Below the pieces are notes generated by a model that ran no database searches, was not told the DNA's origin, and saw nothing but the letters and a program-made list of their open reading frames with translations. Positions 2,759-64,000 of a stretch of 64,000 nt of DNA are shown here, in pieces. Both the position numbers and the translations under genes were made by a program. The stretch comes from Paramacrobiotus metropolitanus (lineage: Eukaryota; Tardigrada; Eutardigrada; Parachela; Macrobiotidae). The stretch is taken from positions 124,001-188,000 of the forward strand of contig NW_026570335.1 in the NCBI RefSeq assembly GCF_019649055.1, in the 5' to 3' direction. Numbering within the stretch: the first letter of the stretch is position 1; each line of letters starts with the position of its first letter.

Positions 2759-2847
2759 TTTGCAGAGATTCTAATGAGTAACTAAACTATGTGTTCGCTT
2801 TCAGTGAGCGCGTTCATAGCTATTTGACCGGAGGCAGCTGTCGGTGG

Positions 2848-3039: not shown

Positions 3040-3399
3040 AGACAGAGCGCGCCAACAGCAAGCTTTCTGATTGGTATCAGAAAGAATCTGACAGCGCCTA
3101 GTGATGTGACTTTTCTCAGAAAAAAGCGGCTAATACACTGCACCGCACATCACCGGCTGCTGCACAACACGACACCTCAAAGGTATGGTAAACTGTACCG
3201 AACCACCACGTATAGGTACTGTATGTATTGTACGATCGATACTCGGGAACAAATAATACTGTACGAGTACTGTACTTTGCACTCGTATAGACAGAGTGAG
3301 GTAACAGCTTATGCACAAACAAGTATTATTGTACTCGTATAGACAGAGCGGGGTAACCGCATGCTGTGTGATTGAATCCGACAGCAGCCGTCAGCGCTT

Positions 3400-3575
3400 G
3401 GCGATGAGTCTTTTCTCAGAAAGCGCCAAGAGAAACAACACTTGTGCTTAAATACTGCACCGTATTGCACCGGGCTCCCGGACAGCACCGGCCCCAGCAC
3501 AGCAGCGCCGTAACATCGCACCGCATCTGATCCAGCACCACATCCAACCGCGCGGCATCGTACAGGTAAGGTAGA
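3400..3575 (+). promoter_or_regulatory. Promoter-like module with splice-donor-like end (best copy)
   Basis: In order: GATGAGTC (3403), TTCTCAGAA (about 3413), TTAAATA (about 3449), a GC-rich stretch with repeated CACCGG/CAGCACC words, then ACAGGTAAGGT at about 3557, a strong match to a 5' splice site (CAG/GTAAG). A neighbouring copy at 3755-3895 shows GATGAGTCA, a TTCTAAGAA variant, TTTATA, CACCGTATTAGACCGG and AAAGGTATGG in the same order. This looks like a core promoter, first exon and splice donor repeated in tandem. The order is seen in the sequence; function is inference. Confidence 0.3.
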
Positions 3576-4640: not shown

Positions 4641-4899
4641 CGCCACTAACAATTTTAAACGGGCTAACATTCACTGGAAACAGCCATGCGCCACTGTCTA
4701 GGAACATATGCTGTTTGCATATTTACAAACAGATATTAGTAATAATTATGATTATATGGACGGACAGATACCGTACTTCCGACAACAAAAAACGTTACTT
4801 ATCTTTTCTTCGTGAGCTGTGGATTCCACACATCGATTGCATTTCCAAGTAAGGCGCAACTACACGGGTTACTACTCAGGTAGGAAATGGTTCCGGTAA
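4641..4899. other. Apparently single-copy spacer before the satellite
   Basis: About 260 bases that match neither the 340-410-bp repeat to the left nor the satellite to the right. It holds no open frame of note. It contains two nested dyads at 4706-4732 and ends in TTCCGGTAAA directly before the first satellite base. Its last bases (CCGGTAAAGTTC) partly resemble the satellite at the same place (ACCGAGTTC), suggesting the junction formed at short homology. Confidence 0.6.
4706..4732. repeat. Nested inverted repeats
   Basis: ATATGC (4706-4711) pairs with GCATAT (4717-4722) around TGTTT. Overlapping it, CTGTTTG (4711-4717) pairs with CAAACAG (4726-4732) around an 8-base loop. The two hairpins share the bases TGTTTGCAT and so would be alternative folds. 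They lie about 170 bases left of the satellite edge. Chance occurrence in AT-rich DNA is possible. Confidence 0.45.
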
Positions 4900-5793
4900 A
4901 GTTCTTTATATTTTTGAATCGATGGCAGTGGCAAAACTGTCTGTCCAAAAATCAGTTACGTTAATACGGATTTCAGCTTATGATAACAGACAGAACTGTT
5001 TGTAAGCCAGTCACGGTATGTACCGTGAGGTTGCTAATAGTGTGAATCTTTTGTAGCTGCCTAGAGCAACGTGGAATTACACCAAACGGTCGTATGGATG
5101 ATAACGGTGTAGCAAAAAATCGGATTACGTTCATACATGGGATTAGAAGGACGAATTGTTTTGCACGTCAACGGTAATTATCGTGAGATCAGAAACAGTT
5201 TGAACCGCTTTTAACTACCTAGAGCAACGTAGAATCGCACCGAACAATCGTATGGAAGAGGATGGTACAGCACAAAACCGGATTTTGTTCAAACATGTGA
5301 TTGCGAAAAAGAATTGTTCAGTGGCGCCAACGGATGTATATCGCGTGCTTGCAAATGATGTGTCCAGTTGGTGGCCAGCTAGGCCAGCACGAAACAGCTC
5401 CATTCTTCATGATGGAATGTTCTAGAACTGACCAGCTAATATCCATGGAAATATATGACCGTTATTGTATGATATCATATTCAAGCCCGCTTATCTACGG
5501 TCGTAGATTGAATTGCTTACTTTTGTTACTCAAATTAAGCCAAATAAATTTTCAGTCATTTCATTCGATTTAACTTTTCAGCCTTTTTACCAGATTTTTA
5601 AAGGCTATAGTCAGGTTTTTTTCAAAAAATGACTTTTTTTAAAAGTTGTTCAGATGACCACTATTTTGCTGAGCGAGTGAAATCTCGAAAGACTGAACCG
5701 AGTTCTTTATAGTTTTGAATCGATGGCAGTGGCAAAACTGTCTGTCCAAAAATCAGTTACGTTAATACGGATTTCAGCTTATGATAACAGACA

Positions 5794-5953
5794 GAACTGT
5801 TTGTAAGCCAGTCACGGTATGTACCGTGAGGTTGCTAATAGTGTGAATCTTTTGTAGCTGCCTAGAGCAACGTGGAATTACACCAAACGGTCGTATGGAT
5901 GATAACGGTGTAGCAAAAAATCGGATTACGTTCATACATGGGATTAGAAGGAC
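5794..5953 (+). repeat. Monomer A of the 800-bp unit (reference copy), 160 bp
   Basis: It runs from GAACTGTTTGTAAGCC to just before GAATTGTTTTGC. It contains the dyad CACGGTATGTACCGTG and the words ACCGTGAGGTTGCTAATAG, CTAGAGCAACGTGGAATTAC and GATTACGTTCATACATGGG. These align co-linearly with monomer B (ATCGTGAGATC, CTAGAGCAACGTAGAATCGC, GGATTTTGTTCAAACATG) with about the same spacing throughout. It recurs in every long and every 340-bp unit. In type II copies CTAGAG becomes CTCGAG, an XhoI site. Confidence 0.8.
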
Positions 5954-6110
5954 GAATTGTTTTGCACGTCAACGGTAATTATCGTGAGATCAGAAACAGT
6001 TTGAACCGCTTTTAACTACCTAGAGCAACGTAGAATCGCACCGAACAATCGTATGGAAGAGGATGGTACAGCACAAAACCGGATTTTGTTCAAACATGTG
6101 ATTGCGAAAA
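5954..6110 (+). repeat. Monomer B of the 800-bp unit (reference copy), 157 bp
   Basis: It runs from GAATTGTTTTGCACGTC to just before GAATTGTTCAGTGGC. It is the closest relative of monomer A, with no gap over about 120 bases from CGTGAG to CATG. It is absent from the 340-bp units. The codon-like words TATCGTGAGATC and CTAGAGCAACGTAGA are separated by the same offset as in monomers A and C. In the rightmost copies (for example 61399 and 63441) the word is GAGATCGCAAACAG; type I has GAGATCAGAAACAG. Confidence 0.8.
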
Positions 6111-6260
6111 GAATTGTTCAGTGGCGCCAACGGATGTATATCGCGTGCTTGCAAATGATGTGTCCAGTTGGTGGCCAGCTAGGCCAGCACGAAACAGCTC
6201 CATTCTTCATGATGGAATGTTCTAGAACTGACCAGCTAATATCCATGGAAATATATGACC
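6111..6260 (+). repeat. Monomer C of the 800-bp unit (reference copy), about 150 bp
   Basis: It starts GAATTGTTCAGTGGCGCCAA and aligns with monomer B through AACGGATGTATATCGC, GCTTGCAAATGATGTG and CTAGGCCAGCACGAAACAGC. It ends near ATCCATGGAAATATATGACC, matching the CATACATGGGATTA end of monomer A. It carries the 10-bp palindrome GTTCTAGAAC in type I; type II has GTTCTAGTAC. The C/D boundary is set by this alignment and is uncertain by about 10 bases. Confidence 0.65.
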
Positions 6261-6442
6261 GTTATTGTATGATATCATATTCAAGCCCGCTTATCTACGG
6301 TCGTAGATTGAATTGCTTACTTTTGTTACTCAAATTAAGCCAAATAAATTTTCAGTCATTTCATTCGATTTAACTTTTCAGCCTTTTTTACCAGATTTTA
6401 AAGGCTATAGTCAGGTTTTTTTCAAAAAATGACTTTTTTTAA
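6261..6442 (+). repeat. Segment D of the 800-bp unit (reference copy), about 182 bp
   Basis: This is the most diverged member. Its status as a monomer rests mainly on spacing: it fills the gap between C and E in a unit whose other parts are 150-160 bp. Weak matches to the other monomers include TCTACGGTCGTAG and TTTCATTCGATT. It has two perfect dyads, TATGATATCATA and CTACGGTCGTAG. It ends in GTCAGG, a T run, an A run and TGAC, a hairpin-like inverted repeat whose homopolymers vary in length between units. Confidence 0.4.
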
Positions 6443-6593
6443 AAGTTGTTCAGATGACCACTATTTTGCTGAGCGAGTGAAATCTCGAAAGACTGAACCG
6501 AGTTCTTTATAGTTTTGAATCGATGGCAGTGGCAAAACTGTCTGTCCAAAAATCAGTTACGTTAATACGGATTTCAGCTTATGATAACAGACA
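6443..6593 (+). repeat. Monomer E of the 800-bp unit (reference copy), 151 bp
   Basis: It starts AAGTTGTTCAGATGACC and ends before GAACTGTTTG of the next A. It aligns with B at the CTGAACCG word (GTTTGAACCG in B; GATTGAACCG in type II E) and with A near its end (TTACGTTAATA against TTACGTTCATA). It occurs alone as the about 151-bp extra unit at 61905, 62056 and 63003, which confirms its limits independently of the alignment. Confidence 0.7.
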
Positions 6594-44806: not shown

Positions 44807-44807
44807 N
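44807..44807. other. Single ambiguous base (N): assembly join with repeat phase jump
   Basis: The base is N. To its left is a type I unit at AATTAAGCCACAAA, in segment D; to its right the sequence resumes at TCAGTGGCGCC, the start of monomer C, in a type II unit. Repeat phase therefore jumps back by about 200 bases and the sequence type changes at the same point. Both sides carry private changes (GTTTAGGTAAGCC at about 44260, ACAATCATGG at about 44509, CCTGTTTTGTAGC at about 44852), as expected of contig ends. The true array length here is unknown. Confidence 0.9.
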
Positions 44808-47575
44808 TCAGTGGCGCCAACGGATGTTATCGCCTGCTTGCAAATGATGTGTCCTGTTTTGTAGCTAGGCCAGCACAGAAACAGCTCCATTTTTGATGAT
44901 GGAATGTTCTAGTACTGACCAGCTAATATCCATGGAAATATATAACCGTTATTGTATGATATCATATTCAAGTCCGCTTATCTGCGGTCGTAGATTGACT
45001 TGCTTATTTTTGTTACTTAAATTAAGCCAAATAAATTTTCAGTCATTTCATTCGATTTAATTTTTCGGCCTTTTTACCAGATTTTTAAAGGCTATTATAG
45101 TCAGGTTTTTTTCAAAAAAATGACTTTTTTTAAAGTTGTTCAGATGACCACTATTTTGCTGAGCGAGTAAAATCTCGAAAGATTGAACCGAGTTCTTTAT
45201 ATTTTTGAATCGACGGCAGTGGCAAAATTGTTTGTGCAAAGATTAGTTACGTTAATATAGATTTCAGCTTATGATAACAGACAGAACTGTTTGTAAGCCA
45301 GTCACGGTATGCACCGTGAGGTTGCTAATAGTGTGAATCTTTTGTAGCTGCCTCGAGCAACGTGGAACTACACCAAACGGTCGTATGGATGATAACGGTG
45401 TAGCAAAAAATCGGATTACGTTCATACATGGGATTAGAAGGACGAATTGTTTTGCACGTCAACGGTTATTATCGTGAGATCGTAAACAGTTTGAACCGCT
45501 TTTAACTACCTAGAGCAACGTAGAATTGCACCGAACAATCATACGGAAGAGGATGGTATAGCACAAAACCGGATTTTGTTCAAACATGTGATTGCGAAAA
45601 GAATTGTTCAGTGGCGCCAACGGATGTATATCGCCTGCTTGCAAATGATGTGTCCTGTTTGTGGCCAGCTAGGCCAGCACGAAACAGCTCCATTTTGATG
45701 ATGGAATGTTCTAGTACTGACCAGCTAATATCCATGGAAATATATAACCGTTATTGTATGATATCATATTCAAGTCCGCTTATCTACGGTCGTAGATTGA
45801 CTTGCTTACTTTTGTTACTTAAATTAAGCCAAATAAATTTTCAGTCATTTCATTCGATTTAATTTTTCGGCCTTTTCACCAGATTTTTAAAGGCTATAGT
45901 CAGGTTTTTTTCGAAAAAATGACTTTTTTAAAAGTTGTTCGGATGACCACTATTTTGCTGAGCGAGTAAAATCTCGAAAGATTGAACCGAGTTCTTTATA
46001 TTTTTGAATCGACGGCAGTGGCAAAATTGTTTGTGCAAAGATTAGTTACGTTAATATAGATTTCAGCTTATGATAACAGACAGAACTGTTTGTAAGCCAG
46101 TCACGGTATGCACCGTGAGGTTGCTAATAGTGTGAATCTTTTGTAGCTGCCTCGAGCAACGTGGAACTACACCAAACGGTCGTATGGATGATAACGGTGT
46201 AGCAAAAAATCGGATTACGTTCATACATGGGATTAGAAGGACGAATTGTTTTGCACGTCAACGGTTATTATCGTGAGATCGTAAACAGTTTGAACCGCTT
46301 TTAACTACCTAGAGCAACGTAGAATTGCACCGAACAATCATACGGAAGAGGATGGTATAGCACAAAACCGGATTTTGTTCAAACATGTGATTGCGAAAAA
46401 GAATTGTTCAGTGGCGCCAACGGATGTATATCGCCTGCTTGCAAATGATGTGTCCTGTTTGTGGCCAGCTAGGCCAGCACGAAACAGCTCCATTTTGATG
46501 ATGGAATGTTCTAGTACTGACCAGCTAATATCCATGGAAATATATAACCGTTATTGTATGATATCATATTCAAGTCCGCTTATCTACGGTCGTAGATTGA
46601 CTTGCTTTTGTTACTTAAATTAAGCCAAATAAATTTTCAGTCATTTCATTCGATTTAATTTTTCGGCCTTTTTACCAGATTTTTAAAGGCTATAGTCAGG
46701 TTTTTTTCGAAAAAATGACTTTTTTAAAAGTTGTTCGGATGACCACTATTTTGCTGAGCGAGTAAAATCTCGAAAGATTGAACCGAGTTCTTTATATTTT
46801 GAATCGACGGCAGTGGCAAAATTGTTTGTGCAAAGATTAGTTACGTTAATATAGATTTCAGCTTATGATAACAGACAGAACTGTTTGTAAGCCAGTCACG
46901 GTATGCACCGTGAGGTTGCTAATAGTGTGAATCTTTTGTAGCTGCCTCGAGCAACGTGGAACTACACCAAACGGTCGTATGGATGATAACGGTGTAGCAA
47001 AAAACGTTCATACATGGGATTAGAAGGACGAATTGTTTTGCACGTCAACGGTTATTATCGTGAGATCGTAAACAGTTTGAACCGCTTTTAACTACCTAGA
47101 GCAACGTAGAATTGCACCGAACAATCATACGGAAGAGGATGGTATAGCACAAAACCGGATTTTGTTCAAACATGTGATTGCGAAAAAGAATTGTTCAGTG
47201 GCGCCAACGGATGTATATCGCCTGCTTGCAAATGATGTGTCCTGTTTGTGGCCAGCTAGGCCAGCACGAAACAGCTCCATTTTTGATGATGGAATGTTCT
47301 AGTACTGACCAGCTAATATCCATGGAAATATATAACCGTTATTGTATGATATCATATTCAAGTCCGCTTATCTACGGTCGTAGATTGACTTGCTTTCTTT
47401 TGTTACTTAAATTAAGCCAAATAAATTTTCAGTCATTTCATTCGATTTAATTTTTCGGCCTTTTACCAGATTTTTAAAGGCTATAGTCAGGTTTTTTCGA
47501 AAAAATGACTTTTTTAAAAGTTGTTCGGATGACCACTATTTTGCTGAGCGAGTAAAATCTCGAAAGATTGAACCG
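44808..47575 (+). repeat. Satellite type II: partial unit and three long units
   Basis: A partial unit to 45190, then long units at 45191 (799 bp), 45990 (796) and 46786 (790). They differ from type I by fixed changes spread over the unit, for example GAGTAAAATCTCG for GAGTGAAATCTCG, AATATAGATT for AATACGGATT, TATGCACCG for TATGTACCG, CCTCGAGC for CCTAGAGC and CTAGTACTG for CTAGAACTG. All five monomers are present and in the same order. Confidence 0.95.
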
Positions 47576-48946
47576 AGTTCTTTATATTTTTGAATCGACG
47601 GCAGTGGCAAAATTGTTTGTGCAAAGATTAGTTACGTTAATATAGATTTCAGCTTATGATAACAGACAGAACTGTTTGTAAGCCAGTCACGGTATGCACC
47701 GTGAGGTTGCTAATAGTGTGAATCTTTTGTAGCTGCCTCGAGCAACGTGGAACTACACCAAACGGTCGTATGGATGATAACGGTGTAGCAAAAAATCGGA
47801 TTACGTTCATACATGGGATTATATAGTCTGGTTTTCTTCAAAAAAATGACTTTTTTAAAAATTGTTCAGATGATCACTATTTTGCTGAGCGAGTAAAATC
47901 TCGAAAGATTGAACCGAGTTCTTTATATTTTGAATCGACGGCGGTAAGCAAATTGTTTTGTGCAAAAGATTATTTACGTTAATATAGATTTCAGCTTATG
48001 ATAACAGACAGAACTTTTTGTAAATAGTCACGGTATGCACCGTGAGGTTGCTAATAGTGTGAATCTTTGTAGCTGCCTCGAGCAACGTGGAACTACACCA
48101 AACGGTCGTATGGATGATAACGGTGTAGCAAAAAAATCGGATTACGTTCATACATGGGATTTTATAGTTTGGTTTTTTTTTCTTCAAAAAAAATGACTTT
48201 TTTTAAAAATTGTTCAGATGATCACTATTTTGCTGAGCGAGTAAAATCTCGAAAGATTGAACCGAGTTCTTTATATTTTTGAATCGACGGCAGTGTAAAA
48301 TTGTTTGTGCAAAGATTATTTACGTTAATATAGATTTCAGCTTATGATAACAGACAGAACTTTTTGTAAGCCAGTCACGGTATGCACCGTGAGGTTGCTA
48401 ATAATGTGAATCTTTTGTAGCTGCCTCGAGCAACGTGGAACTACACCAAACGGTCGTATGGATGATAACGGTGTAGCAAAAAATCGGATTACGTTCATAC
48501 ATGGGATTATGAAGTCAGGTTTTTTCAAAAAAAATGACTTTTAAGAAATTGTTCAGATGACCACTATTTTGCTGAGCGAGTAAAATCTCGAAAGATTGAA
48601 CCGAGTTCTTTATATTTTTGAATCGACGGCAGTGGCAAAATTGTTTGTGCAAAGATTATTTACGTTAATATAGATTTCAGCTTATGATAACAGACAGAAC
48701 TTTTTTGTAAGCCATGATCTGGTATGCACCGTGAGGTTGCTAATAATGTGAATCTTTTGTAGCTGCCTCGAGCAACGTGGAACTACACCAAACGGTCGTA
48801 TGGATGATAACGGTGTAGCAAAAAATCGGATTACGTTCATACATGGGATTATATAGTCAGGTTTTTTTCGAAAAAATGACTTTTTTAAAAGTTGTTCGGA
48901 TGACCACTATTTTGCTGAGCGAGTAAAATCTCGAAAGATTGAACCG
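47576..48946 (+). repeat. Four 339-348-bp short satellite units (E+A dimers)
   Basis: Units start at 47576, 47917, 48265 and 48604. Each is a type II unit lacking monomers B and C and most of D: CATGGGATTA at the end of A runs straight into TATAGTCAGG at the end of D. The joint is the same in all short units in the window, so one deletion or crossover product was amplified. Confidence 0.93.
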
Positions 48947-49745
48947 AGTTCTTTATATTTTTGAATCGACGGCAGTGGCAAAATTGTTTGTGCAAAGATT
49001 ATTTACGTTAATATAGATTTCAGCTTATGATAACAGACAGAACTTTTTGTAAGCCAGTCACGGTATGCACCGTGAGGTTGCTAATAGTGTGAATCTTTTG
49101 TAGCTGCCTCGAGCAACGTGGAACTACACCAAACGGTCGTATGGATGATAACGGTGTAGCAAAAAATCGGATTACGTTCATACATGGGATTAGAAGGACG
49201 AATTGTTTTGCACGTCAACGGTTATTATCGTGAGATCGTAAACAGTTTGAACCGCTTTTAACTACCTAGAGCAACGTAGAATTGCACCGAACAATCATAC
49301 GGAAGAGGATGGTATAGCACAAAACCGGATTTTGTTCAAACATGTGATTGCGAAAAAGAATTGTTCAGTGGCGCCAACGGATGTATATCGCCTGCTTGCA
49401 AATGATGTGTCCTGTTTGTGGCCAGCTAGGCCAGCACGAAACAGCTCCATTTTGATGATGGAATGTTCTAGTACTGACCAGCTAATATCCATGGAAATAT
49501 ATAACCGTTATTGTATGATATCATATTCAAGTCCGCTTATCTACGGTCGTAGATTGACTTGCTTACTTTTGTTACTTAAATTAAGCCAAATAAATTTTCA
49601 GTCATTTCATTCGATTTAATTTTTCGGCCTTTTCACCAGATTTTTAAAGGCTATAGTCAGGTTTTTTCGAAAAATGACTTTTTTTAAAAGTTGTTCAGAT
49701 GACCACTATTTTGCTGAGCGAGTAAAATCTCGAAAGATTGAACCG
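48947..49745 (+). repeat. Long type II satellite unit, 799 bp
   Basis: A complete A-E unit between two blocks of four short units. It contains GGGATTAGAAGGACG at 49186-49200, the sequence missing from short units. Confidence 0.95.
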
Positions 49746-51112
49746 AGTTCTTTAATATATTGAATCGACGGCAGTGGCAAAATTGTTTGTGCAAAGATTA
49801 GTTACGTTAATATAGATTTCAGCTTATGATAACAGACAGAACTGTTTGTAAGCCAGTCACGGTATGCACCGTGAGGTTGCTAATAGTGTGAATCTTTTGT
49901 AGCTGCCTCGAGCAACGTGGAACTACACCAAACGGTCGTATGGATGATAACGGTGTAGCAAAAAATCGGATTACGTTCATACATGGGATTATATAGGCAG
50001 GTTTTCTTCAAAAAAATGACTTTTTTTAAAAGTTGTTCAGATGACCACTATTTTGCTGAGCGAAAAGTAAAATCTCGAAAGATTGACCAAATTCTTTATA
50101 TTTTGATCATGACGGCAGTGGCAAAATTGTTTGTGCAAAGATTATTTACGTTAATATAGATTTCAGCTTATGATAACAGACAGAACTTTTTGTGTAAGCC
50201 AGTCACGGTATGCACCGTGAGGTTGCTAATAATATGAATCTTTTGCCGCTGCCTCGAGCTAACGTGGAACTACACCAAACGGTCGTATGGATGATAACGG
50301 TGTAGCAAAAATCGGATTACGTTCATACATGGGATTATATAGTCAGGTTTTTCTTCAAAAAAATGACTTTTTAAAAATTGTTCAGATGACCACTATTTTG
50401 CTGAGCGAGTAAAATCTGGAAAGATTGAACCGAGTTCTTTATATTTTTGAATCGACGGCAGTTGCAAATTGTTTGTGCAAAGATTATTTACGTTAATATA
50501 GATTTCAGCTTATGATAACAGACAGAACTTTTTGTAAGCCAGTCACGGTATGCACCGTGAGGTTGCTAATAGTGTGAATCTTTTGTAGCTGCCTCGAGCT
50601 ACGTGGAACTACACCAAACGGTCGTATGGATGATAACGGTGTAGCAAAAAATCGGATTACGTTCATACATGGGATTATAAATTGTTTTTTCATTCAAAAA
50701 TGACTTTCTTAAAACATTGTTCAGATGAACACTTTTATTTTGCTGAGCGAGTAAAATCTCGGAAAGATTGAACCGAGTTCTTTATATTTTTGAATCGACG
50801 GCAGTTGTAAAATTGTTTGTGCAAAAGATTATTTACGTTAATATAGATTTCAGCTTATGATAACAGACAGAACTGTTTGTAAGCCAGTCACGGTATGCAC
50901 TGTGAGGTTGCTAATAGTGTGAATCTTTGTAGCTGCCTCGAGCAACGTGGAACTACACCAAACGGTCGTATGGATGATAACGGTGTAGCAAAAAAATCGG
51001 ATTACGTTCATACATGGGATTATATAGTCAGGTTTCTTCAAAAAAATGACTTTTTTGGTGTTCAGATGATCACTATTTTGCTGAGCGAGTGAAATCTCGA
51101 AAGATTGAACCG
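49746..51112 (+). repeat. Four short satellite units, 337-344 bp
   Basis: Units at 49746, about 50090, 50433 and 50776. They are noisier than neighbours: the second start is altered to ATTCTTTATA, there is a CGAAAAGTAAAATC insertion at about 50060, and one copy reads AAATCTGGAAAG, losing the CGA of the CGAG/CTCG stem. Confidence 0.9.
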
Positions 51113-51912
51113 AGTTCTTTATATTTTGAATCGACGGCAGTGGCAAATTGTTTGTGCAAAGATTATTTACGTTAATATAGATTTCAGCTTATGATAACAG
51201 ACAGAACTTTTTGTAAGCCAGTCACGGTATGCACCGTGAGGTTGCTAATAGTGTGAATCTTTTGTAGCTGCCTCGAGCAACGTGGAACTACACCAAACGG
51301 TCGTATGGATGATAACGGTGTAGCAAAAAATCGGATTACGTTCATACATGGGATTAGAAGGACGAATTGTTTTGCACGTCAACGGTTATTATCGTGAGAT
51401 CGTAAACAGTTTGAACCGCTTTTAACTACCTAGAGCAACGTAGAATTGCACCGAACAATCACACGGAAGAGGATGGTATAGCACAAAACCGGATTTTGTT
51501 CAAACATGTGATTGCGAAAAAAGAATTGTTCAGTGGCGCCAACGGATGTATATCGCCTGCTTGCAAATGATGTGTCCTGTTTGTGGCCAGCTAGGCCAGC
51601 ACGAAACAGCTCCATTTTTGATGATGGAATGTTCTAGTACTGACCAGCTAATATCCATGGAAATATATAACCGTTATTGTATGATATCATATTCAAGTCC
51701 GCTTATCTACGGTCGTAGATTGACTTGCTTTCTTTTGTTACTTAAATTAAGCCAAATAAATTTTCAGTCATTTCATTCGATTTAATTTTTCGGCCTTTTT
51801 ACCAGATTTTTAAAGGCTATAGTCAGGTTTTTCTCGAAAAAATGACTTTTTTAAAAGTTGTTCGGATGACCACTATTTTGCTGAGCGAGTAAAATCTCGA
51901 AAGATTGAACCG
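51113..51912 (+). repeat. Long type II satellite unit, 800 bp
   Basis: A complete unit with all five monomers. It reads ATCACACGG at about 51459 where the neighbours have ATCATACGG. Confidence 0.95.
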
Positions 51913-52934
51913 AGTTCTTTATATTTTTGAATCGACGGCAGTGGCAAAATTGTTTGTGCAAAGATTATTTACGTTAATATAGATTTCAGCTTATGATAAC
52001 AGACAGAACTTTTTGTAAGCCAGTCACGGTATGCACCGTGAGGTTGCTAATAGTGTGAATCTTTTGTAGCTGCCTCGAGCAACGTGGAACTACACCAAAC
52101 GGTCGTATGGATGATAACGGTGTAGCAAAAAATCGGATTACGTTCATACATGGGATTATATAGTCAGCTTTTCTTCAAAAAAATGACTTTTTTAAAAATT
52201 GTTCAGATGACCACTATTTTGCTGAGCGAGTAAAATCTGGAAAGATTGAACCGAGTTCTTTATATTTTTGAATCGACGGCAGTGGCAAATTGTTTGTGCA
52301 AAGATTATTTACGTTAATATAGATTTCAGCTTATGATAACAGACAGAACTGTTTGTAAGCCAGTCACGGTATGCACTGTGAGGTTGCTAATAGTGTGAAT
52401 CTTTTGTAGCTGCCTCGAGCAACGTGGAACTACACCAAACGGTCGTATGGATGATAACGGTGTAGCAAAAAATCGGATTACGTTCATACATGGGATTATA
52501 TAGTCAGGTTTTCTTCAAAAAAATGACTTTTTTAAAAATTGTTCAGATGATCACTATTTTGCTGAGCGAGTAAAATCTCGGAAAGATTGAACCGAGTTCT
52601 TTATATTTTGAATCGACGGCAGTGGCAAAATTGTTTGTGCAAAGATTAGTTACGTTAATATAGATTTCAGCTTATGATAACAGACAGAACTGTTTGTAAG
52701 CCAGTCACGGTATGCACTGTGAGGTTGCTAATAGTGTGAATCTTTTGTAGCTGCCTCGAGCAACGTGGAACTACACCAAACGGTCGTATGGATGATAACG
52801 GTGTAGCAAAAAATCGGATTACGTTCATACATGGGATTATATAGTCAGGTTTTCTTCAAAAAAATGACTTTTTTAAAAATTGTTCAGATGATCACTATTT
52901 TGCTGAGCGAGTAAAATCTCGAAAGATTGAACCG
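51913..52934 (+). repeat. Three short satellite units, 340-341 bp
   Basis: Units at 51913, 52254 and 52595. The latter two carry GCACTGTGAGG in place of GCACCGTGAGG, which breaks the CACGGT/ACCGTG dyad of monomer A. One joint reads AGTCAGCTTTTCTTC, a variant also seen at about 58620. Confidence 0.93.
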
Positions 52935-53733
52935 AGTTCTTTATATTTTTGAATCGACGGCAGTGGCAAATTGTTTGTGCAAAGATTATTTACGTTAATA
53001 TAGATTTCAGCTTATGATAACAGACAGAACTTTTTGTAAGCCAGTCACGGTATGCACCGTGAGGTTGCTAATAGTGTGAATCTTTTGTAGCTGCCTCGAG
53101 CAACGTGGAACTACACCAAACGGTCGTATGGATGATAACGGTGTAGCAAAAAATCGGATTACGTTCATACATGGGATTAGAAGGACGAATTGTTTTGCAC
53201 GTCAACGGTTATTATCGTGAGATCGTAAACAGTTTGAACCGCTTTTAACTACCTAGAGCAACGTAGAATTGCACCGAACAATCATACGGAAGAGGATGGT
53301 ATAGCACAAAACCGGATTTTGTTCAAACATGTGATTGCGAAAAGAATTGTTCAGTGGCGCCAACGGATGTATATCGCCTGCTTGCAAATGATGTGTCCTG
53401 TTTGTGGCCAGCTAGGCCAGCACGAAACAGCTCCATTTTTGATGATGGAATGTTCTAGTACTGACCAGCTAATATCCATGGAAATATATAACCGTTATTG
53501 TATGATATCATATTCAAGTCCGCTTATCTACGGTCGTAGATTGACTTGCTTTCTTTTGTTACTTAAATTAAGCCAAATAAATTTTCAGTCATTTCATTCG
53601 ATTTAATTTTTCGGCCTTTTTACCAGATTTTTAAAGGCTATAGTCAGGTTTTTTTCGAAAAAATGACTTTTTTAAAAGTTGTTCGGATGACCACTATTTT
53701 GCTGAGCGAGTAAAATCTCGAAAGATTGAACCG
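52935..53733 (+). repeat. Long type II satellite unit, 799 bp
   Basis: A complete unit between a three-short block and a four-short block. Confidence 0.95.
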
Positions 53734-55093
53734 AGTTCTTTATATTTTTGAATCGACGGCAGTGGCAAAATTGTTTGTGCAAAGATTATTTACGTTAATA
53801 TAGATTTCAGCTTATGATAACAGACAGAACTTTTGTAAGCCAGTCACGGTATGCACCGTGAGGTTGCTAATAGTGTGAATCTTTTGTAGCTGCCTCGAGC
53901 AACGTGGAACTACACCAAACGGTCGTATGGATGATAACGGTGTAGCAAAAAATCGGATTACGTTCATACATGGGATTATATAGTCAGGTTTTTCTTCAAA
54001 ATGACTTTTTTAAAAATTGTTCAGATGACCACTATTTTGCTGAGCGAGTAAAATCTGGAAAGATTGAACCGAGTTCTTTATATTTTTGAATCGACGGCAG
54101 TGGCAAACGGTGTTTGTGCAAAGATTATTTACGTTAATATAGATTTCAGCTTATGATAACAGACAGAACTGTTTGTAAGCCAGTCACGGTATGCACTGTG
54201 AGGTTGCTAATAGTGTGAATCTTTTGTAGCTGCCTCGAGCAACGTGGAACTACACCAAACGGTCGTATGGATGATAACGGTGTAGCAAAAAATCGGATTG
54301 TGTTCATACATGGGATTATATAGTCAGGTTTTCTTCAAAAAAATGACTTTTTTAAAAATTGTTCAGATGATCACTATTTTGCTGAGCGAGTAAAATCTGG
54401 AAAGATTGAACCGAGTTCTTTATATTTTTGAATCGACGGCAGTGGCAAATTGTTTGTGCAAAGATTATTTACGTTAATATAGATTTCAGCTTATGATAAC
54501 AGACAGAACTGTTTGTAAGCCAGTCACGGTATGCACTGTGAGGTTGCTAATAGTGTGAATCTTTTGTAGCTGCCTCGAGCAACGTGGAACTACACCAAAC
54601 GGTCGTATGGATGATAACGGTGTAGCAAAAAATCGGATTACGTTCATACATGGGATTATATAGTCAGGTTTTCTTCAAAAAAATGACTTTTTAAAAATTG
54701 TTCAGATGACCACTATTTTGCTGAGCGAGTAAAATCTCGAAAGATTGAACCGAGTTCTTTATATTTTTGAATCGACGGCAGTGGCAAATTGTTTGTGCAA
54801 AGATTATTTACGTTAATATAGATTTCAGCTTATGATAACAGACAGAACTGTTTGTAAGCCAGTCACGGTATGCACCGTGAGGTTGCTAATAGTGTGAATC
54901 TTTTGTAGCTGCCTCGAGCAACGTGGAACTACACCAAACGGTCGTATGGATGATAACGGTGTAGCAAAAAATCGGATTACGTTCATACATGGGATTATAT
55001 AGGCAGGTTTTCTTCAAAAAAATGACTTTTTTTAAAAGTTGTTCAGATGACCACTATTTTGCTGAGCGAGTAAAATCTCGAAAGATTGAACCG
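53734..55093 (+). repeat. Four short satellite units, 338-342 bp
   Basis: Units at 53734, 54072, 54414 and 54753. Two copies carry GCACTGTGAGG and two carry AAATCTGGAAAG, the same linked variants as in the preceding short blocks, which argues for block-wise duplication. Confidence 0.93.
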
Positions 55094-56685
55094 AGTTCTT
55101 TATATTTTTGAATCGACGGCAGTGGCAAATTGTTTGTGCAAAGATTATTTACGCTAATATAGATTTCAGCTTATGATAACAGACAGAACTTTTTGTAAGC
55201 CAGTCACGGTATGCACCGTGAGGTTGCTAATAGTGTGAATCTTTTGTAGCTGCCTCGAGCAACGTGGAACTACACCAAACGGTCGTATGGATGATAACGG
55301 TGTAGCAAAAAATCGGATTACGTTCATACATGGGATTAGAAGGACGAATTGTTTTGCACGTCAACGGTTATTATCGTGAGATCGTAAACAGTTTGAACCG
55401 CTTTTAACTACCTAGAGCAACGTAGAATTGCACCGAACAATCATACGGAAGAGGATGGTATAGCACAAAACCGGATTTTGTTCAAACATGTGATTGCGAA
55501 AAGAATTGTTCAGTGGCGCCAACGGATGTATATCGCCTGCTTGCAAATGATGTGTCCTGTTTGTGGCCAGCTAGGCCAGCACGAAACAGCTCCATTTTTG
55601 ATGATGGAATGTTCTAGTACTGACCAGCTAATATCCATGGAAATATATAACCGTTATTGTATGATATCATATTCAAGTCCGCTTATCTACGGTCGTAGAT
55701 TGACTTGCTTACTTTTGTTACTTAAATTAAGCCAAATAAATTTTCAGTCATTTCATTCGATTTAATTTTTCGGCCTTTTTACCAGATTTTTAAAGGCTAT
55801 AGTCAGGTTTTTCTCGAAAAAATGACTTTTTTAAAAGTTGTTCGGATGACCACTATTTTGCTGAGCGAGTAAAATCTCGAAAGATTGAACCGAGTTCTTT
55901 ATATTTTTGAATCGACGGCAGTGGCAAAATTGTTTGTGCAAAGATTATTTACGTTAATATAGATTTCAGCTTATGATAACAGACAGAACTTTTTGTAAGC
56001 CAGTCACGGTATGCACCGTGAGGTTGCTAATAGTGTGAATCTTTGTAGCTGCCTCGAGCAACGTGGAACTACACCAAACGGTCGTATGGATGATAACGGT
56101 GTAGCAAAAAATCGGATTACGTTCATACATGGGATTAGAAGGACGAATTGTTTTGCACGTCAACGGTTATTATCGTGAGATCGTAAACAGTTTGAACCGC
56201 TTTTAACTACCTAGAGCAACGTAGAATTGCACCGAACAATCATACGGAAGAGGATGGTATAGCACAAAACCGGATTTTGTTCAAACATGTGATTGCGAAA
56301 AGAATTGTTCAGTGGCGCCAACGGATGTATATCGCCTGCTTGCAAATGATGTGTCCTGTTTGTGGCCAGCTAGGCCAGCACGAAACAGCTCCATTTTGAT
56401 GATGGAATGTTCTAGTACTGACCAGCTAATATCCATGGAAATATATAACCGTTATTGTATGATATCATATTCAAGTCCGCTTATCTACGGTCGTAGATTG
56501 ACTTGCTTTTGTTACTTAAATTAAGCCAAATAAATTTTCAGTCATTTCATTCGATTTAATTTTTCGGCCTTTTTACCAGATTTTTAAAGGCTATAGTCAG
56601 GTTTTTTCGAAAAAATGACTTTTTTAAAAGTTGTTCGGATGACCACTATTTTGCTGAGCGAGTAAAATCTCGAAAGATTGAACCG
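55094..56685 (+). repeat. Two consecutive long type II units (799 and 793 bp)
   Basis: Complete units at 55094 and 55893. The first AT-rich joint of the region (ATATAGGCAGG at about 54999) just precedes them and is shared with about 49991, another sign of block duplication. Confidence 0.94.
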
Positions 56686-59392
56686 AGTTCTTTATATTTT
56701 TGAATCGACGGCAGTGGCAAAATTGTTTGTGCAAAGATTATTTACGTTAATATAGATTTCAGCTTATGATAACAGACAGAACTTTTTGTAAGCCAGTCAC
56801 GGTATGCACCGTGAGGTTGCTAATAGTGTGAATCTTTTGTAGCTGCCTCGAGCAACGTGGAACTACACCAAACGGTCGTATGGATGATAACGGTGTAGCA
56901 AAAAATCGGATTACGTTCATACATGGGATTATATAGTCAGTTTTCTTCAAAAAAAATGACTTTTTTAAAAGTTGTTCAGATGACCACTATTTTGCTGAGC
57001 GAGTAAAATCTGGAAAGATTGAACCGAGTTCTTTATATTTTTGAATCGACGGCAGTGGCAAAATTGTTTGTGCAAAGATTATTTACGTTAATATAGATTT
57101 GAGCTTATGATAACAGACAGAACTGTTTGTAAGCCAGTCACGGTATGCACCGTGAGGTTGCTAATAGTGTGAATCTTTTGTAGCTGCCTCGAGCAACGTG
57201 GAACTACACCAAACGGTCGTATGGTTATTAACGGTGTAGCAAAAAATCGGATTACGTTCATACATGGGATTATATAGCAGGTTTTCTTCAAAAAATGACT
57301 TTTTTAAAAGTTGTTCAGATGACCACTATTTTGCTGAGCGAGTAAAATCTCGAAAGATTGAACCGAGTTCTTTATATTTTTGAATCGACGGCAGTGGCAA
57401 ATTGTTTGTGCAAAGATTATTTACGTTAATATAGATTTCAGCTTATGATAACAGACAGAACTTTTGTAAGCCAGTCACGGTATGCACCGTGAGGTTGCTA
57501 ATAGTGTGAATCTTTTGTAGCTGCCTCGAGCAACGTGGAACTACACCAAACGGTCGTATGGATGATAACGGTGTAGCAAAAATCGGATTACGTTCATACA
57601 TGGGATTATAAGTCAGGTTTCTTCAAATGACTTTTTTTTAAAAGTTGTTCAGATGACCACTATTTTTACTGAGCAGCGAGTAAATCTGGAAAGATTGACC
57701 GAGTTCTTCATATTTTGAATCGACAGCAGTGGCAAATTGTTTGTGCAAAGATTATTTACGTTAATATAGATTTGAGCTTATGATAACAGACAGAACTGTT
57801 TGTAAGCCAGTCACGGTATGCACCGTGAGGTTGCTAATAATGTGAATCTTTTGTAGCTGCCTCGAGCAACGTGGAACTACACCAAACGGTCGTATGGATG
57901 ATAACGGTGTAGCAAAAAATCGGATTACGTTCGCCATGGGATTATATAGTCAGGTTTTCTTCAAAAAATGACTTTTTAAAAGTTGTTCAGATGACCACTA
58001 TTTTGCTGAGCGAGTAAAATCTCGAAAGATTGAACCGAGTTCTTTATATTTTGAATCGACGGCAGTGGCAAAATTGTTTGTGCAAAGATTATTTACGTTA
58101 ATATAGATTTCAGCTTATGATAACAGACAGAACTTTTGTAAGCCAGTCACGGTATGCACCGTGAGGTTGCTAATAGTGTGAATCTTTTGTAGCTGCCTCG
58201 AGCAACGTGGAACTACACCAAACGGTCGTATGGATGATAACGGTGTAGCAAAAAATCGGATTACGTTCATACATGGGATTATATAGACGGGTTTTCTTCA
58301 AAAAAAATGACTTTTTTTAAAAATTGTTCGGATGACCACTATTTTGCTGAGCGAGTAAAATCTCGAAAGATTGAACCGAGTTCTTTATATTTTGAATCGA
58401 CGGCAGTGGCAAATTGTTTGTGCAAAGATTATTTACGTTAATATAGATTTCAGCTTATGATAACAGACAGAACTTTTGTAAGCCAGTCACGGTATGCACC
58501 GTGAGGTTGCTAATAGTGTGAATCTTTGTAGCTGCCTCGAGCAACGTGGAACTACACCAAACGGTCGTATGGATGATAACGGTGTAGCAAAAATCAATTT
58601 ACGTTCATACATGGGATTATATAGTCAGCTTTTCTTCAAAAAAATGACTTTTTTAAAAATTGTTCAGATGACCACTATTTTGCTGAGCGAGTAAAATCTG
58701 GAAAGATTGAACCGAGTTCTTTATATTTTTGAATCGACGGCAGTGGCAAATTGTTTGTGCAAAGATTATTTACGTTAATATAGATTTCAGCTTATGATAA
58801 CAGACAGAACTGTTTGTAAGCCAGTCACGGTATGCACCGTGAGGTTGCTAATAGTGTGAATCTTTTGTAGCTGCCTCGAGCAACGTGGAACTACACCAAA
58901 CGGTCGTATGGATGATAACGGTGTAGCAAAAAATCGGATTACGTTCATACATGGGATTATATAGTCAGGTTTTCTTCAAAAAAATGACTTTTTTAAAAAT
59001 TGTTCGGATGATCACTATTTTGCTGAGCGAGTAAAATCTCGAAAGATTGAACCGAGTTCTTTATATTTTTGAATCGACGGCAGTGGCAAATTGTTTGTGC
59101 AAAGATTATTTACGTTAATATAGATTTCAGCTTATGATAACAGACAGAACTTTTGTAAGCCAGTCACGAGTATGCACCGTGAGGTTGCTAATAGTGTAGA
59201 ATCTTTTGTAGCTGCCTCGAGCAACGTGGAACTACACCAAACGGTCGTATGGATGATAACGGTGTAGCAAAAATCGGATTACGTTCATACATGGGATTAT
59301 ATAGTCAGGTTTTCTTCAAAAAATGACTTTTTAAAAATTGTTCGGATGACCACTATTTTGCTGAGCGAGTAAAATCTCGAAAGATTGAACCG
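56686..59392 (+). repeat. Eight short satellite units, 336-341 bp
   Basis: Units at 56686, 57027, 57366, 57702, 58038, 58379, 58715 and 59055. This is twice the usual run of four. The copy at 57366-57701 is the most damaged (TTTTTACTGAGCAGCGAG at about 57664 and CGCCATGGG at about 57932 in the next copy). Confidence 0.93.
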
Positions 59393-60968
59393 AGTTCTTT
59401 ATATTTTTGAATCGACGGCAGTGGCAAATTGTTTGTGCAAAGATTATTTACGTTAATATAGATTTCAGCTTATGATAACAGACAGAACTTTTTGTAAGCC
59501 AGTCACGGTATGCACCGTGAGGTTGCTAATAGTGTGAATCTTTTGTAGCTGCCTCGAGCAACGTGGAACTACACCAAACGGTCGTATGGATGATAACGGT
59601 GTAGCAAAAATCGGATTACGTTCATACATGGGATTAGAAGGACGAATTGTTTTGCACGTCAACGGTTATTATCGTGAGATCGCAAACAGTTTGAACCGCT
59701 TTAACTACCTAGAGCAACGTAGAATTGCACCGAACAATCATACGGAAGAGGATGGTATAGCACAAAACCGGATTTTGTTCAAACATGTGATTGCGAAAAG
59801 AATTGTTCAGTGGCGCCAACGGATGTATATCGCCTGCTTGCAAATGATGTGTCCTGTTTGTGGCCAGCTAGGCCAGCACGAAACAGCTCCATTTTGATGA
59901 TGGAATGTTCTAGTACTGACCAGCTAATATCCATGGAAATATATAACCGTTATTGTATGATATCATATTCAAGTCCGCTTATCTACGGTCGTAGATTGAC
60001 TTGCTATTTTGTTACTTAAATTAAGCCAAATAAATTTTCAGTCATTTCATTCGATTTAATTTTTCGGCTTTTTACCAGATTTTAAAGGCTATAGTCAGGT
60101 TTTTCGAAAAATGACTTTTTAAAAGTTGTTCGGATGACCACTATTTTGCTGAGCGAGTAAAATCTCGAAAGATTGAACCGAGTTCTTTATATTTTTGAAT
60201 CGACGGCAGTGGCAAAATTGTTTGTGCAAAGATTAGTTACGTTAATATAGATTTCAGCTTATGATAACAGACAGAACTTTGTAAGCCAGTCACGGTATGC
60301 ACTGTGAGGTTGCTAATAGTGTGAATCTTTTGTAGCTGCCTCGAGCAACGTGGAACTACACCAAACGGTCGTATGGATGATAACGGTGTAGCAAAAATCG
60401 GAATACGTTCATACATGGGATTAGAAACGAATTGTTTTGCACGTCAACGGTATTATCGTGAGATCGTAAACAGTTTGAACCGCTTTTAACTACCTAGAGC
60501 AACGTAGAATTGCACCGAACAATCATACGGAAGAGGATGGTATAGCACAAAACCGGATTTTGTTCAAACATGTGATTGCGAAAAAGAATTGTTCAGTGGC
60601 GCCAACGGATGTATATCGCCTGCTTGCAAATGATGTGTCCTGTTTGGCCAGCTAGGCCAGCACGAAACAGCTCCATTTTTGATGATGGAATGTTCTGGTA
60701 CTGACCAGCTAATATCCATGGAAATATATAACCGTTATTGTATGATATCATATTCAAGTCCGCTTATCTACGGTCGTAGATTGACTTGCTTACTTTGTTA
60801 CTTAAATTAAGCCAAATAAATTTTCAGTCATTTCATTCGATTTAATTTTTCGGCCTTTTCACCAGATTTTTAAAGGCTATAGTCAGGTTTTTTCGAAAAA
60901 TGACTTTTAAAAGTTGTTCAGATGACCACTATTTTGCTGAGCGAGTAAAATCTCGAAAGATTGAACCG
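59393..60968 (+). repeat. Two consecutive long type II units (788 and 788 bp)
   Basis: Units at 59393 and 60181. In the first, monomer B has CGCTTTAAC (three T) instead of CGCTTTTAAC, opening a 103-codon frame (59586-59897), and it reads GATCGCAAAC like the rightmost copies. The second has lost several bases in homopolymers. Confidence 0.93.
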
Positions 60969-61117
60969 AGTTCTTTATATTTTGAATCGACGGCAGTGGC
61001 AAAATTGTTTGTGCAAAGATTAGTTACGTTAATATAGATTTCAGCTTATGATAACAGACAGAACTGTTTGTAAGACCACTTGTTTACTAAGCGGTAAAAC
61101 CTCGAAAGATTGAACCG
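60969..61117 (+). repeat. Single-monomer satellite unit, 149 bp
   Basis: Monomer E alone. CTGTTTGTAAG at the start of A is joined to ACCACTTGTTTACTAAGC, a variant of ACCACTATTTTGCTGAGC of E. The joint lies 14 bases into the monomer on both sides. Confidence 0.9.
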
Positions 61118-61904
61118 AGTTCTTCATTTTTGAATCGACGGCAGTGGCAAAATGGTTTGTGCAAAGATTAGTTACGTTAATATAGATTTCAGCTTATGAT
61201 AACAGACAGAACTGTTTGTAAGCTCGTCACGGTATGCACTGTGAGGTTGCTAATAGTGTGAATCTTTGTAGCTGCCTCGAGCAACGTGAACTACACCAAA
61301 CGGTCGTATGGATGATAACGGTGTAGCAAAAATTGAATACGTTCATACATGGAATTAGAAAAACGAATTGTTTTGCACGTCAACGGTAATTATCGTGAGA
61401 TCGCAAACAGTTTGAACCGCTTTAACTACCTAGAGCAACGTAGAATTGCACCGAACAATCATACGGAAGAGGATGGTATAGCACAAAACCGGATTTTGTT
61501 CAAACATGTGATTGCGAAAGAATTGTTCAGTGGCGCCAACGGATGTATATCGCTTGCTTGCAAATGATGTGTCCTGTTTGGGCCAGCCAGGCCAGCACGC
61601 AACAGCTCCATTTTTGATGATGGAATGTTCTGTACTGACCAGCTAATATCCATGGAAATATATAACCGCTATTGTATGATATCATATTCAAGTCCGCTTA
61701 TCTACGGTCGTAGATTGACTTGCTTACTTTTGTTACTTAAATTAAGCCAAATAAATTTTCAGTCATTTCATTCGATTTAATTTTTCGGCCTTTTCACCAG
61801 ATTTTTAAAGGCTATAGTCAGGTTTTTTCAAAAAATGACTTTTTAAAAGTTGTTCAGATGACCACTATTTTGCTGAGCGAGTAAAATCTCGAAAGTTCGA
61901 ACCG
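61118..61904 (+). repeat. Long type II satellite unit, 787 bp
   Basis: A complete unit with GATCGCAAAC and the three-T CGCTTTAAC in B, so the first 51 codons of B are open from ATG at 61349. It reads ATGGAATTAGAAAAACG where other units have ATGGGATTAGAAGGACG. Confidence 0.93.
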
Positions 61905-62206
61905 AGTTCTTTATATTTTTGAATTGACGGCAGTGGCAAAATTGTTTGTGCAAAGATTAATTACGTTAATATAGATTTCAGCTTATGATAACAGACAGAA
62001 CTGTTTGTAAGACCACTTGTTTACTAAGCGAGTAAAATCTCGAAAGATTGAACCGAGTTCTTTATATTTTTGAACCGACGGCAGTGGCAAAATGGTTTGT
62101 GCAAAGATTAGTTACGTTAATATAGATTTCAGCTTATGATAACAGACAGAACTGTTTGTAAGACCACTTGTTTACTAAGCGAGTAAAATCTCGAAAGATT
62201 GAACCG
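61905..62206 (+). repeat. Two single-monomer satellite units, 151 bp each
   Basis: Units at 61905 and 62056 give a clean tandem of monomer E with a 151-bp period (GACCACTTG at 62011 and 62162). They share the GTTTGTAAGACCACTTG joint with the other single-monomer units. Confidence 0.93.
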
Positions 62207-63002
62207 AGTTCTTTATATTTTTGAATCGACGGCAGTGGCAAAATTGTTTGTGCAAAGATTAGTTACGTTAATATAGATTTCAGCTTATGATAACAGACAG
62301 AACTGTTTGTAAGCTCGTCACGGTATGCACCGTGAGGTTGCTAATAGTGTGAATCTTTTGTAGCTGCCTCGAGCACCGTGGAACTACACCAAACAGTCGT
62401 ATGGATGATAACGGTGTAGCAAAAAATCGGAATACGTTCATACATGGAATTAGAAAAACGAATTGTTTTGCACGTCAACGGTAATTATCGTGAGATCGCA
62501 AACAGTTTGAACCGCTTTTAACTACCTAGAGCAACGTAGAATTGCACCGAACAATCATACGGAAGAGGATGGTATAGCACAAAACCGGATTTTGTTCAAA
62601 CATGTGATTGCGAAAAAGAATTGTTCAGTGGCGCCAACGGATGTATATCGCTTGCTTGCAAATGATGTGTCCTGTTCGGGGCCAGCCAGGCCAGCACGCA
62701 ACAGCTCCATTTTTGATGATGGAATGTTCTGGTACTGACCAGCTAATATCCATGGAAATATATAACCGCTATTGTATGATATATATTCAAGCCCGCTTAT
62801 CTACGGTTGGAGATTGACTTGCTTTATTTGTTACTTAAATTAAGCCAAATAAATTTTCAGTCATTTCATTCGATTTAATTTTCGGCCTTTTCACCAGATT
62901 TTTAAAGGCTATAGTCAGGTTTTTTCAAAAAATGACTTTTTTAAAAGTTGTTCAGATGACCACTATTTTACTGAGCGAGTAAAATCTCGAAAGTTTGAAC
63001 CA
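62207..63002 (+). repeat. Long type II satellite unit, 796 bp
   Basis: A complete unit with GATCGCAAAC in B. It has lost the GATATC palindrome (TATGATATATATTC at about 62776), and CTACGGTTGGAG replaces the CTACGGTCGTAG dyad. Confidence 0.93.
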
Positions 63003-63153
63003 AGTTCTTTATATTTTTGAATTGACGGCAGTGGCAAAATTGTTTGTGCAAAGATTAATTACGTTAATATAGATTTCAGCTTATGATAACAGACAGAACT
63101 GTTTGTAAGACCACTTGTTTACTAAGCGAGTAAAATCTCGAAAGATTGAACCG
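63003..63153 (+). repeat. Single-monomer satellite unit, 151 bp
   Basis: Monomer E alone, with the same joint as at 61074 and 62011. Confidence 0.93.
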
Positions 63154-64000
63154 AGTTCTTCATATTTTGAATCGACGGCAGTGGCAAAATGGTTTGTGCA
63201 AAGATTAGTTACGTTAATATAGATTTCAGCTTATGATAACAGACAGAACTGTTTGTAAGCTCGTCACGGTATGCACTGTGAGGTTGCTAATAGTGTGAAT
63301 CTTTTGTAGCTGCCTCGAGCAACGTGGAACTACACCAAACGGTCGTATGGATGATAACGGTGTAGCAAAAAATCGGAATACGTTCATACATGGAATTAGA
63401 AAAACGAATTGTTTTGCACGTCAACGGTAATTATCGTGAGATCGCAAACAGTTTGAACCGCTTTTAACTACCTAGAGCAACGTAGAATTGCACCGAACAA
63501 TCATACGGAAGAGGATGGTATAGCACAAAACCGGATTTTGTTCAAACATGTGATTGCGAAAAAGAATTGTTCAGTGGCGCCAACGGATGTATATCGCTTG
63601 CTTGCAAATGATGTGTCCTGTTCGGGGCCAGCCAGGCCAGCACGCAACAGCTCCATTTTTGATGATGGAATGTTCTGGTACTGACCAGCTAATATCCATG
63701 GAAATATATAACCGCTATTGTATGATATCATATTCAAGTCCGCTTATCTACGGTTGTAGATTGACTTGCTTTATTTTGTTACTTAAATTAAGCCAAATAA
63801 ATTTTCAGTCATTTCATTCGATTTAATTTTTCGGCCTTTTCACCAGATTTTTAAAGGCTATAGTCAGGTTTTTTTCAAAAAATGACTTTTTAAAAGTTGT
63901 TCAGATGACCACTATTTTACTGAGCGAGTAAAATCTCGAAAGATTGAACCGAGTTCTTTATATTTTTGAATCGACGGCAGTGGCAAAATTGTTTGTGCAA
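63154..64000 (+). repeat. Long type II unit (798 bp) and partial unit at window end
   Basis: A complete unit 63154-63951 with GATCGCAAAC in B, then 49 bases of the next unit. The satellite runs off the window edge, so its right limit is not seen. Confidence 0.94.

What the first reader, a model, noticed from the sequence alone, without database searches (positions are those of the whole stretch)
4900..64000. The 800-bp unit is a pentamer of an ancient monomer of about 160 bp
Seen: A (160 bp), B (157), C (150) and E (151) align in order through shared words: GTGAG, TTGCTAATAG / TCGCAAACAG / TTGCAAATGATG; CTAGAGCAACG / CTAGAGCAACG / CTAGGCCAGCACG; TTACGTTCATA in A and TTACGTTAATA in E; TTGAACCG in B and E. 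D (182 bp) is weak and placed by spacing. Known: alphoid-type satellites are built as higher-order repeats of diverged monomers. Inference: an old monomeric satellite of near-nucleosome length gave a pentamer that was then amplified.
Basis: partly seen in the sequence, partly recalled or inferred. Interest (0 to 1): 0.75.

Follow-up and report, generated by a model that had tools for sequence, protein, structure and literature searches.

The report
Complex 800-bp satellite, pentamer unproven
A long run of near-identical 800-base repeats in a probably animal genome contains an old internal duplication of a roughly 157-base piece (two full copies and half of a third), but the rest of the unit shows no reliable relation to that piece, so it is best read as an ordinary complex satellite DNA rather than a proven five-copy, alphoid-style repeat.

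Summary
The 800-bp tandem array is real: window 4900-64000, continuing 2.3 kb beyond it. The pentamer claim is only partly right. A and B are one tandemly duplicated ~157-bp segment (71-75% identical; 0 of 500 shuffles). The first ~80 bp of C is a third, in-phase relative (0 of 2000 shuffles). Homology below about 60% identity cannot be excluded.

The family sits in six arrays (C24, C90, C115, C134, C190, C425), which hold 233 of 233 genome matches to a 28-base word of D. Identity falls with distance. Variants include ~341-bp E-A units, E duplications, one A/B fusion and a ~46-bp-shorter A in 28 of 28 copies of one array. A single N at 44807 marks an abrupt subtype switch, so the window array may be an assembly join. 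Genome size suggests the tardigrade Paramacrobiotus metropolitanus (inferred). A centromere role is possible, untested. New member of a known kind.

The parts
4900..64000 (+). Satellite array with ~800-bp unit; continues past the window to window coordinate 66305 (L010 ~2305)
   Evidence: 386 modules in all, 370 ending inside the window
5007..5162 (+). Module A (first complete copy), ~157 bp
   Evidence: 71-75% identical to B
5164..5319 (+). Module B, ~156 bp, tandem duplicate of A
5321..5455 (+). Module C, ~135 bp; only its first ~80 bp is related to A/B, in phase
   Evidence: 0 of 2000; first 82 bp 0 of 500; rest 359 of 500
5457..5654 (+). Module D, ~199 bp, 28.6% GC; no reliable relation to the others
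5656..5807 (+). Module E, ~152 bp; no reliable relation to the others; duplicated on its own near the right edge
44807..44807 (.). The only N of the window, inside a broken D, followed by an extra C-D and an abrupt change of unit subtype: possible assembly join
47482..59636 (+). Five blocks of ~340-bp E-A units (47482-49192, 49660-51356, 51818-53179, 53639-55338, 56592-59636) between full units
   Evidence: one search counts 20 A-E and 3 A-D joins in C115
60924..61222 (+). E duplicated (~150-bp step)
61860..62313 (+). E triplicated (151-bp step)
62958..63259 (+). E duplicated (~150-bp step)

Best explanation
This is a complex satellite DNA family with an ~800-bp unit. SHOWN: a ~157-bp segment is present as two tandem copies (A, B; 71-75% identical) and as a third, in-phase partial relative (first ~80 bp of C); the remaining ~400 bp (rest of C, D, E) has no reproducible kinship with that segment; the family forms six arrays in this assembly; neighbouring units are more alike than distant ones. 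INFERRED: an old tandem duplication inside a longer ancestral unit, then amplification of the whole unit, with homogenisation by local unequal exchange; out-of-register or microhomology exchanges made the variant units (341-bp E-A, E-E, an A/B fusion, the shortened A of C190). No coding or RNA function was recognised; any role is as chromosome-structure DNA, and a centromere role is possible (about 0.2) but untested.
For: A-B. C. D and E negative. Six arrays with 233 of 233 genome matches to a 28-base word of D. Identity falls with distance in all four arrays examined for it. Private variants: a 21-mer, chosen because it is rare in C115, C24 and C90, has 30 of 30 genome matches in C134; A is 109-111 bp in 28 of 28 C190 modules. 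No Rfam match in window 1-7300; the longest open frame (106 aa) is reached by 16 of 300 shuffles and is open for 100 or more codons in 99 of 274 units.
Against: The test has little power below 60% identity. B-D 3 of 1000 and A-E 1 of 500 in one unit hint at faint kinship of D and E. E is close to monomer length and is duplicated by itself. The C link is thin: B-C local 218 of 500, C profile on B no hit. Homogenisation by array is incomplete: mean identity within C24 (0.979) equals C24 against C115 left (0.979), and within C134 (0.957) is below C134 against C115 right (0.962).
Confidence: 0.8

Rival explanations
1. One reading: all five modules descend from one ~160-bp monomer, and D and E have diverged past recognition (a true pentameric higher-order repeat).
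For: A, B and the first half of C are in phase; E is 152 bp and is duplicated as a single module; B-D 3 of 1000; A-E 1 of 500 in one unit; low power below 60% identity.
Against: Adding diverged copies strengthens C but not E or D; D is 199 bp and 28.6% GC against 41-42% for A and B; the ~341-bp variant step is not a whole number of ~157-bp monomers.
Confidence: 0.15
2. Part of the picture is an assembly product: the window array joins two arrays or haplotypes at the N (44807), and some variant units are misassemblies.
For: The only N of the window lies exactly at the abrupt subtype switch, with no gradient in the ten units before it; small indel differences between neighbouring units in the 47-60 kb part (seen).
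Against: A-E/A-D joins also occur at two places in C134 and E-E joins at 22 places there, so the variants themselves are found at two loci.
Confidence: 0.4
3. The array is a centromeric satellite of its chromosome.
For: Few large arrays with distinct flanks; near-nucleosome segment; a tardigrade HJURP modelled with its CENPA is reported in PMC13001451 (passages only).
Against: Six arrays against five chromosome pairs reported for the presumed species (passage of PMC11191345); no CENP-B box; an H3-like protein whose best listed PDB matches are H3.3 and H3.Y, not CENP-A; no chromatin data; four of six arrays stop at contig ends.
Confidence: 0.2

Closest known systems
Primate alpha-satellite pentameric higher-order repeats (SF3: chromosomes 1, 11, 17, X; passages of PMC8122249)
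   Same: Tandem unit of several hundred bp holding ~70%-identical near-nucleosome segments, with neighbouring units 97-100% identical.
   Different: Only A, B and half of C are shown to be related here; D and E are not; no CENP-B box; no centromere evidence; no sequence relation tested or claimed.
Responder satellite of Drosophila melanogaster (dimer of two 120-bp monomers, 84% identical; passage of PMC8122249)
   Same: Satellite unit that contains an older internal tandem duplication.
   Different: There the duplicated monomer makes up the whole unit; here it makes up about half of it.

Membership tests
Higher-order repeat of one monomer (alphoid-type organisation) | Unit made of several homologous monomers, about 70% identical to each other | tested here: not met
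   A-B met (71-75%); C only over its first ~80 bp; D and E not met; power limited below 60% identity
Higher-order repeat of one monomer (alphoid-type organisation) | Neighbouring units 97-100% identical | tested here: met
   Lag-1 identity 0.9987 (C115 left block), 0.9897 (C24), 0.9908 (C90), 0.9730 (C134)
Higher-order repeat of one monomer (alphoid-type organisation) | Array- or chromosome-specific variants | tested here: inconclusive
   Private variants in C134 and C190, but C24 and C134 are no more alike within than to other arrays, and only C190 is a clean clade
Alpha satellite | CENP-B box in some monomers | tested here: not met
   None with up to 2 mismatches in the consensus unit, both strands
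Centromeric satellite | Bound by CENP-A | not testable with these tools
   No chromatin data
Complex satellite DNA | Long head-to-tail arrays of a non-coding unit at few loci | tested here: met
   233 of 233 genome matches to a D word lie in six arrays
Paramacrobiotus metropolitanus as the source organism | Assembly statistics or a diagnostic gene | tested here: inconclusive
   169,799,020 bp in 533 contigs against 170,483,395 bp in 684 scaffolds (passage of PMC8277472); COX1 no match; the lipocalin-family hit was not diagnostic

The most novel reading that the evidence does not exclude
The family is the centromeric satellite of a tardigrade and a genuine five-monomer higher-order repeat whose D and E have diverged past recognition. 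It would show, outside primates, successive steps of higher-order repeat growth (two-, five-, six- and seven-module units and diverged four-module remnants) side by side in one small genome.
Probability: 0.06. Interest if true: 0.7.

Novelty: new member of a known kind. Interest (0 to 1): 0.33.

Why it matters
If the species inference is right, this is a multi-locus satellite family of a tardigrade. Three searches of the open-access library listed 2, 1 and 5 papers, none with a title about tardigrade satellites; other literature was not searched. The 800-bp unit and its array-specific words are ready probes to ask whether tardigrade chromosomes have satellite centromeres, and the variants let module duplication, fusion and deletion be followed at several loci.

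Tried and rejected
Single-unit pairwise local alignments gave only A-B clearly; fixed-phase global tests hinted at C, which led to the profile tests. A 106-aa open frame across B-C-D was dropped: 16 of 300 shuffles reach it and it is open in 99 of 274 units. Rfam on window 1-7300: nothing. CENP-B box: none.

I considered that the C134 remnants without B (order D-E-A'-C-D) are the ancestral state. At the 44 sites where A and B differ, copy A'1 has A's letter at 19 of the first 20 and B's at 17 of the last 24, as a fused A/B would; A'3 is mixed and is followed by a second A-like copy. Ancestral single copy and A/B fusion both remain open.

Organism: COX1 no match; the lipocalin hit is an ordinary fatty-acid-binding protein. 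The ~313-320-bp repeat beside two arrays was tested as a relative of the modules: best profile hit over all ten flanks E 0.2, and that one (C profile, C134r_low 5371-5408) lies outside the repeat. My first notebook entry calls contig C425 all satellite; that is wrong (23,468 bp, of which the first 8,166 are satellite).
Full report
WHAT IS THERE. The window is bases 124001-188000 of contig C115 (604,001 bp) in a 169.8-Mb, 533-contig eukaryotic assembly. From window 4900 on, words recur at 799-803 bp. I cut one unit into A, B, C, D, E and searched the fetched stretches with these. C115 holds 386 modules over 61.4 kb, ending at window coordinate 66305, 2.3 kb past the window; 370 end inside it.

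THE PENTAMER CLAIM, pairwise. In one window unit only A-B stands clear of dinucleotide shuffles (z 39, 0 of 500); A-E reached 1 of 500, A-C 22, B-D 28, and the other six pairs 119-446 of 500. With array consensuses aligned globally in fixed phase (19 comparisons, 1000 shuffles each): A-B 75% and 0 of 1000, A-C150 0, B-C150 3, B-D 3, A-C 6, B-C 15, B-E 38, and the other twelve 95-934, with A-E at 320. A separate repeat finder reports A-B as its only long repeat (132 bp, spacing 158, 74%).

PROFILES SUPPORT HALF OF C. A profile of A and B finds C positions 6-81 against model positions 4-78, the expected phase, at 8.4 bits (0 of 2000; shuffle maximum 5.5, or 8.2 for the 150-bp version). Four diverged A-type copies raise it to 18.4 bits (0 of 2000, maximum 9.2). 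The first 82 bp carry the signal (z 9.3, 0 of 500); the rest does not (359 of 500). The reverse test with a C profile gives 1 of 1000 on A, no hit on B, 0 of 1000 on a diverged A copy, and B-C local with consensuses is 218 of 500, so the link is real but thin.

PROFILES DO NOT SUPPORT D OR E. Neither gets a hit from the A/B profile. The best values elsewhere are a D profile on E, 66 of 1000, on a diverged E, 35 of 1000, and on the C remainder, 13 of 1000, and a C profile on a diverged D in reverse orientation, 19 of 1000; with 30 comparisons in that call I do not read these as signals. Diverged copies helped C but not E: A or the A-type consensus against three diverged E copies gives 238-493 of 500, and A-E with array consensuses 39 of 500. 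The words offered for E are common by chance: an exact 8-mer between B and E in 153 of 400 shuffles, an 11-mer with one mismatch between A and E in 55 of 400, a 12-mer in 21 of 400. Power: simulated monomers at 70, 65, 60, 55 and 50% identity were detected above 8 bits in 186, 161, 106, 49 and 17 of 200. A very old pentamer is not excluded; it is not shown.

THE FAMILY IN THE GENOME. A 28-base word of D, up to 3 mismatches, has 146 forward and 87 reverse matches. The fetched arrays hold 65 (C115), 51 (C134) and 30 (C90) forward and 56 (C24), 21 (C190) and 10 (C425) reverse, that is 233 of 233. Copies that have lost this word would escape the count, as the C134 remnant at 305380-306432 does. 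The arrays are C24 558252-607659, C90 579083 to the contig end, C115 128900-190305, C134 327355 to the contig end, C190 contig start to 20911, and C425 contig start to 8166; with the remnant, 1,496 modules and 234 kb. Ten flanks of 1.1-15.3 kb compared with each other share three relations: the two sides of an insert in C134 (97.6% over 169 bp), C134r_low with C90_left (67-68%) and C134r_high with C24_high (66%). So the arrays are at different places.

HOW IT EVOLVES. Among 274 full units, identity falls with distance: C115 left block 0.9987 at lag 1 and 0.9918 at lag 40, C24 0.9897 and 0.9688, C134 0.9730 and 0.9515, C90 0.9908 at lag 1 and 0.9711 at lag 20. Local unequal exchange would give this (inference). 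Some variants are private: a 21-mer chosen for being rare in C115, C24 and C90 has 30 of 30 genome matches in C134, and A is 109-111 bp in 28 of 28 C190 modules. Against strict array homogenisation, C24 is as like C115 left (0.979) as itself (0.979), and C134 is less alike within (0.957) than to C115 right (0.962); in the tree only C190 is a clean clade.

VARIANT UNITS. C115 has 20 A-E and 3 A-D joins (the ~341-bp units), C134 one of each; E-E joins number 5 in C115 and 22 in C134 (the 27-base pattern lists 5 and 19). C24 has one E-B order, where A and B are fused with a scrambled middle. C115 has one D-C order at the N. The 341-bp step is not a whole number of ~157-bp monomers. The diverged remnants of C134 have the orders D-E-A'-C-D and E-A-C-D-E-A-A.

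ASSEMBLY CAUTION. The window's only N is at 44807, inside a broken D, where the unit subtype switches from one like C425 and C24 to one like C90 and C134. The ten C115 units listed before the switch show no gradient. The array may be two arrays joined.

ORGANISM, inferred. Size and contig count lie close to the Paramacrobiotus sp. TYO assembly (170,483,395 bp, 684 scaffolds; passages of PMC8277472); the P. metropolitanus paper gives 170 Mbp and 2n = 10 (passages of PMC11191345). That TYO and P. metropolitanus are the same animal is recalled. No gene test succeeded.

FUNCTION. No Rfam match in window 1-7300, no conserved open frame. A centromere role is possible by analogy: few large arrays, and a tardigrade HJURP modelled with CENPA (passages of PMC13001451). 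Against it: six arrays for five chromosome pairs, no CENP-B box, an H3-like protein whose best listed PDB matches are H3.3 and H3.Y. I put it at 0.2.

VERDICT. Array confirmed; the monomer idea holds for A, B and half of C; the pentamer is not shown. For comparison, human alpha-satellite monomers within a higher-order unit are about 70% identical and neighbouring units 97-100% (passages of PMC8122249). It is a complex satellite, a new member of a known kind.

Noticed in passing
G000:C134:306433-327354 (ends read in L053 and L052): A ~20.9-kb insert splits a diverged, reverse-oriented piece of the satellite inside D; its ends are inverted repeats (97.6% over 169 bp) and GTTGTT stands on both sides (read). 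It looks like a large transposable element (Polinton-like, recalled); its interior was only probed by four 300-base pieces without satellite hits.
   Followed up: partly
L055 1-2782 (G000:C90:576301-579082) and L053 ~3700-4379 (G000:C134 ~304.7-305.4 kb): A second tandem repeat of ~313-320 bp abuts the 800-bp family at two loci; the two are 67-68% alike, show no profile hit to A-E inside the repeat, and the C90 form has its best self-offset at 159 bp (35.8%; not tested against shuffles).
   Followed up: partly
G000:C134:356865-357654: A ~790-bp insertion between C and D in an otherwise regular array; sequence printed, not identified.
   Followed up: no
window 8-1802 (continuing from L009 9584): Degenerate ~25-bp AT-rich repeats with TGTACGCGTGCA-like cores.
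   Followed up: no
window 1835-2082: 26-bp minisatellite CTCTGATTGGTCAGACACGCCCCCTT, 9.6 copies, 95% matches.
   Followed up: no
window ~2900-4450: Diverged repeated stretches containing words such as GTACGAGTACTGTAC and CTCGTATAGACAGAGC between the minisatellite and the array (read by eye).
   Followed up: no
L010 ~4820-7700: Right flank: a DNA-binding-like frame and, further on, a transposase-like stretch, reminiscent of PIF/Harbinger; judged by eye and recalled, not searched.
   Followed up: no
L005 and L006 (G000:C3:1715908-1716234 and C19:147381-147692): Two divergent H3-like frames with unusual N-terminal parts; possible CENP-A candidates by eye, but the PDB search of the second lists H3.3 and H3.Y first; the first was not searched.
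   Followed up: partly
L031/L030 (G000:C425, ~16.3-17.5 kb): A 31-bp tandem repeat of ~37 copies (also read as 92-bp) about 8 kb from the array edge.
   Followed up: no
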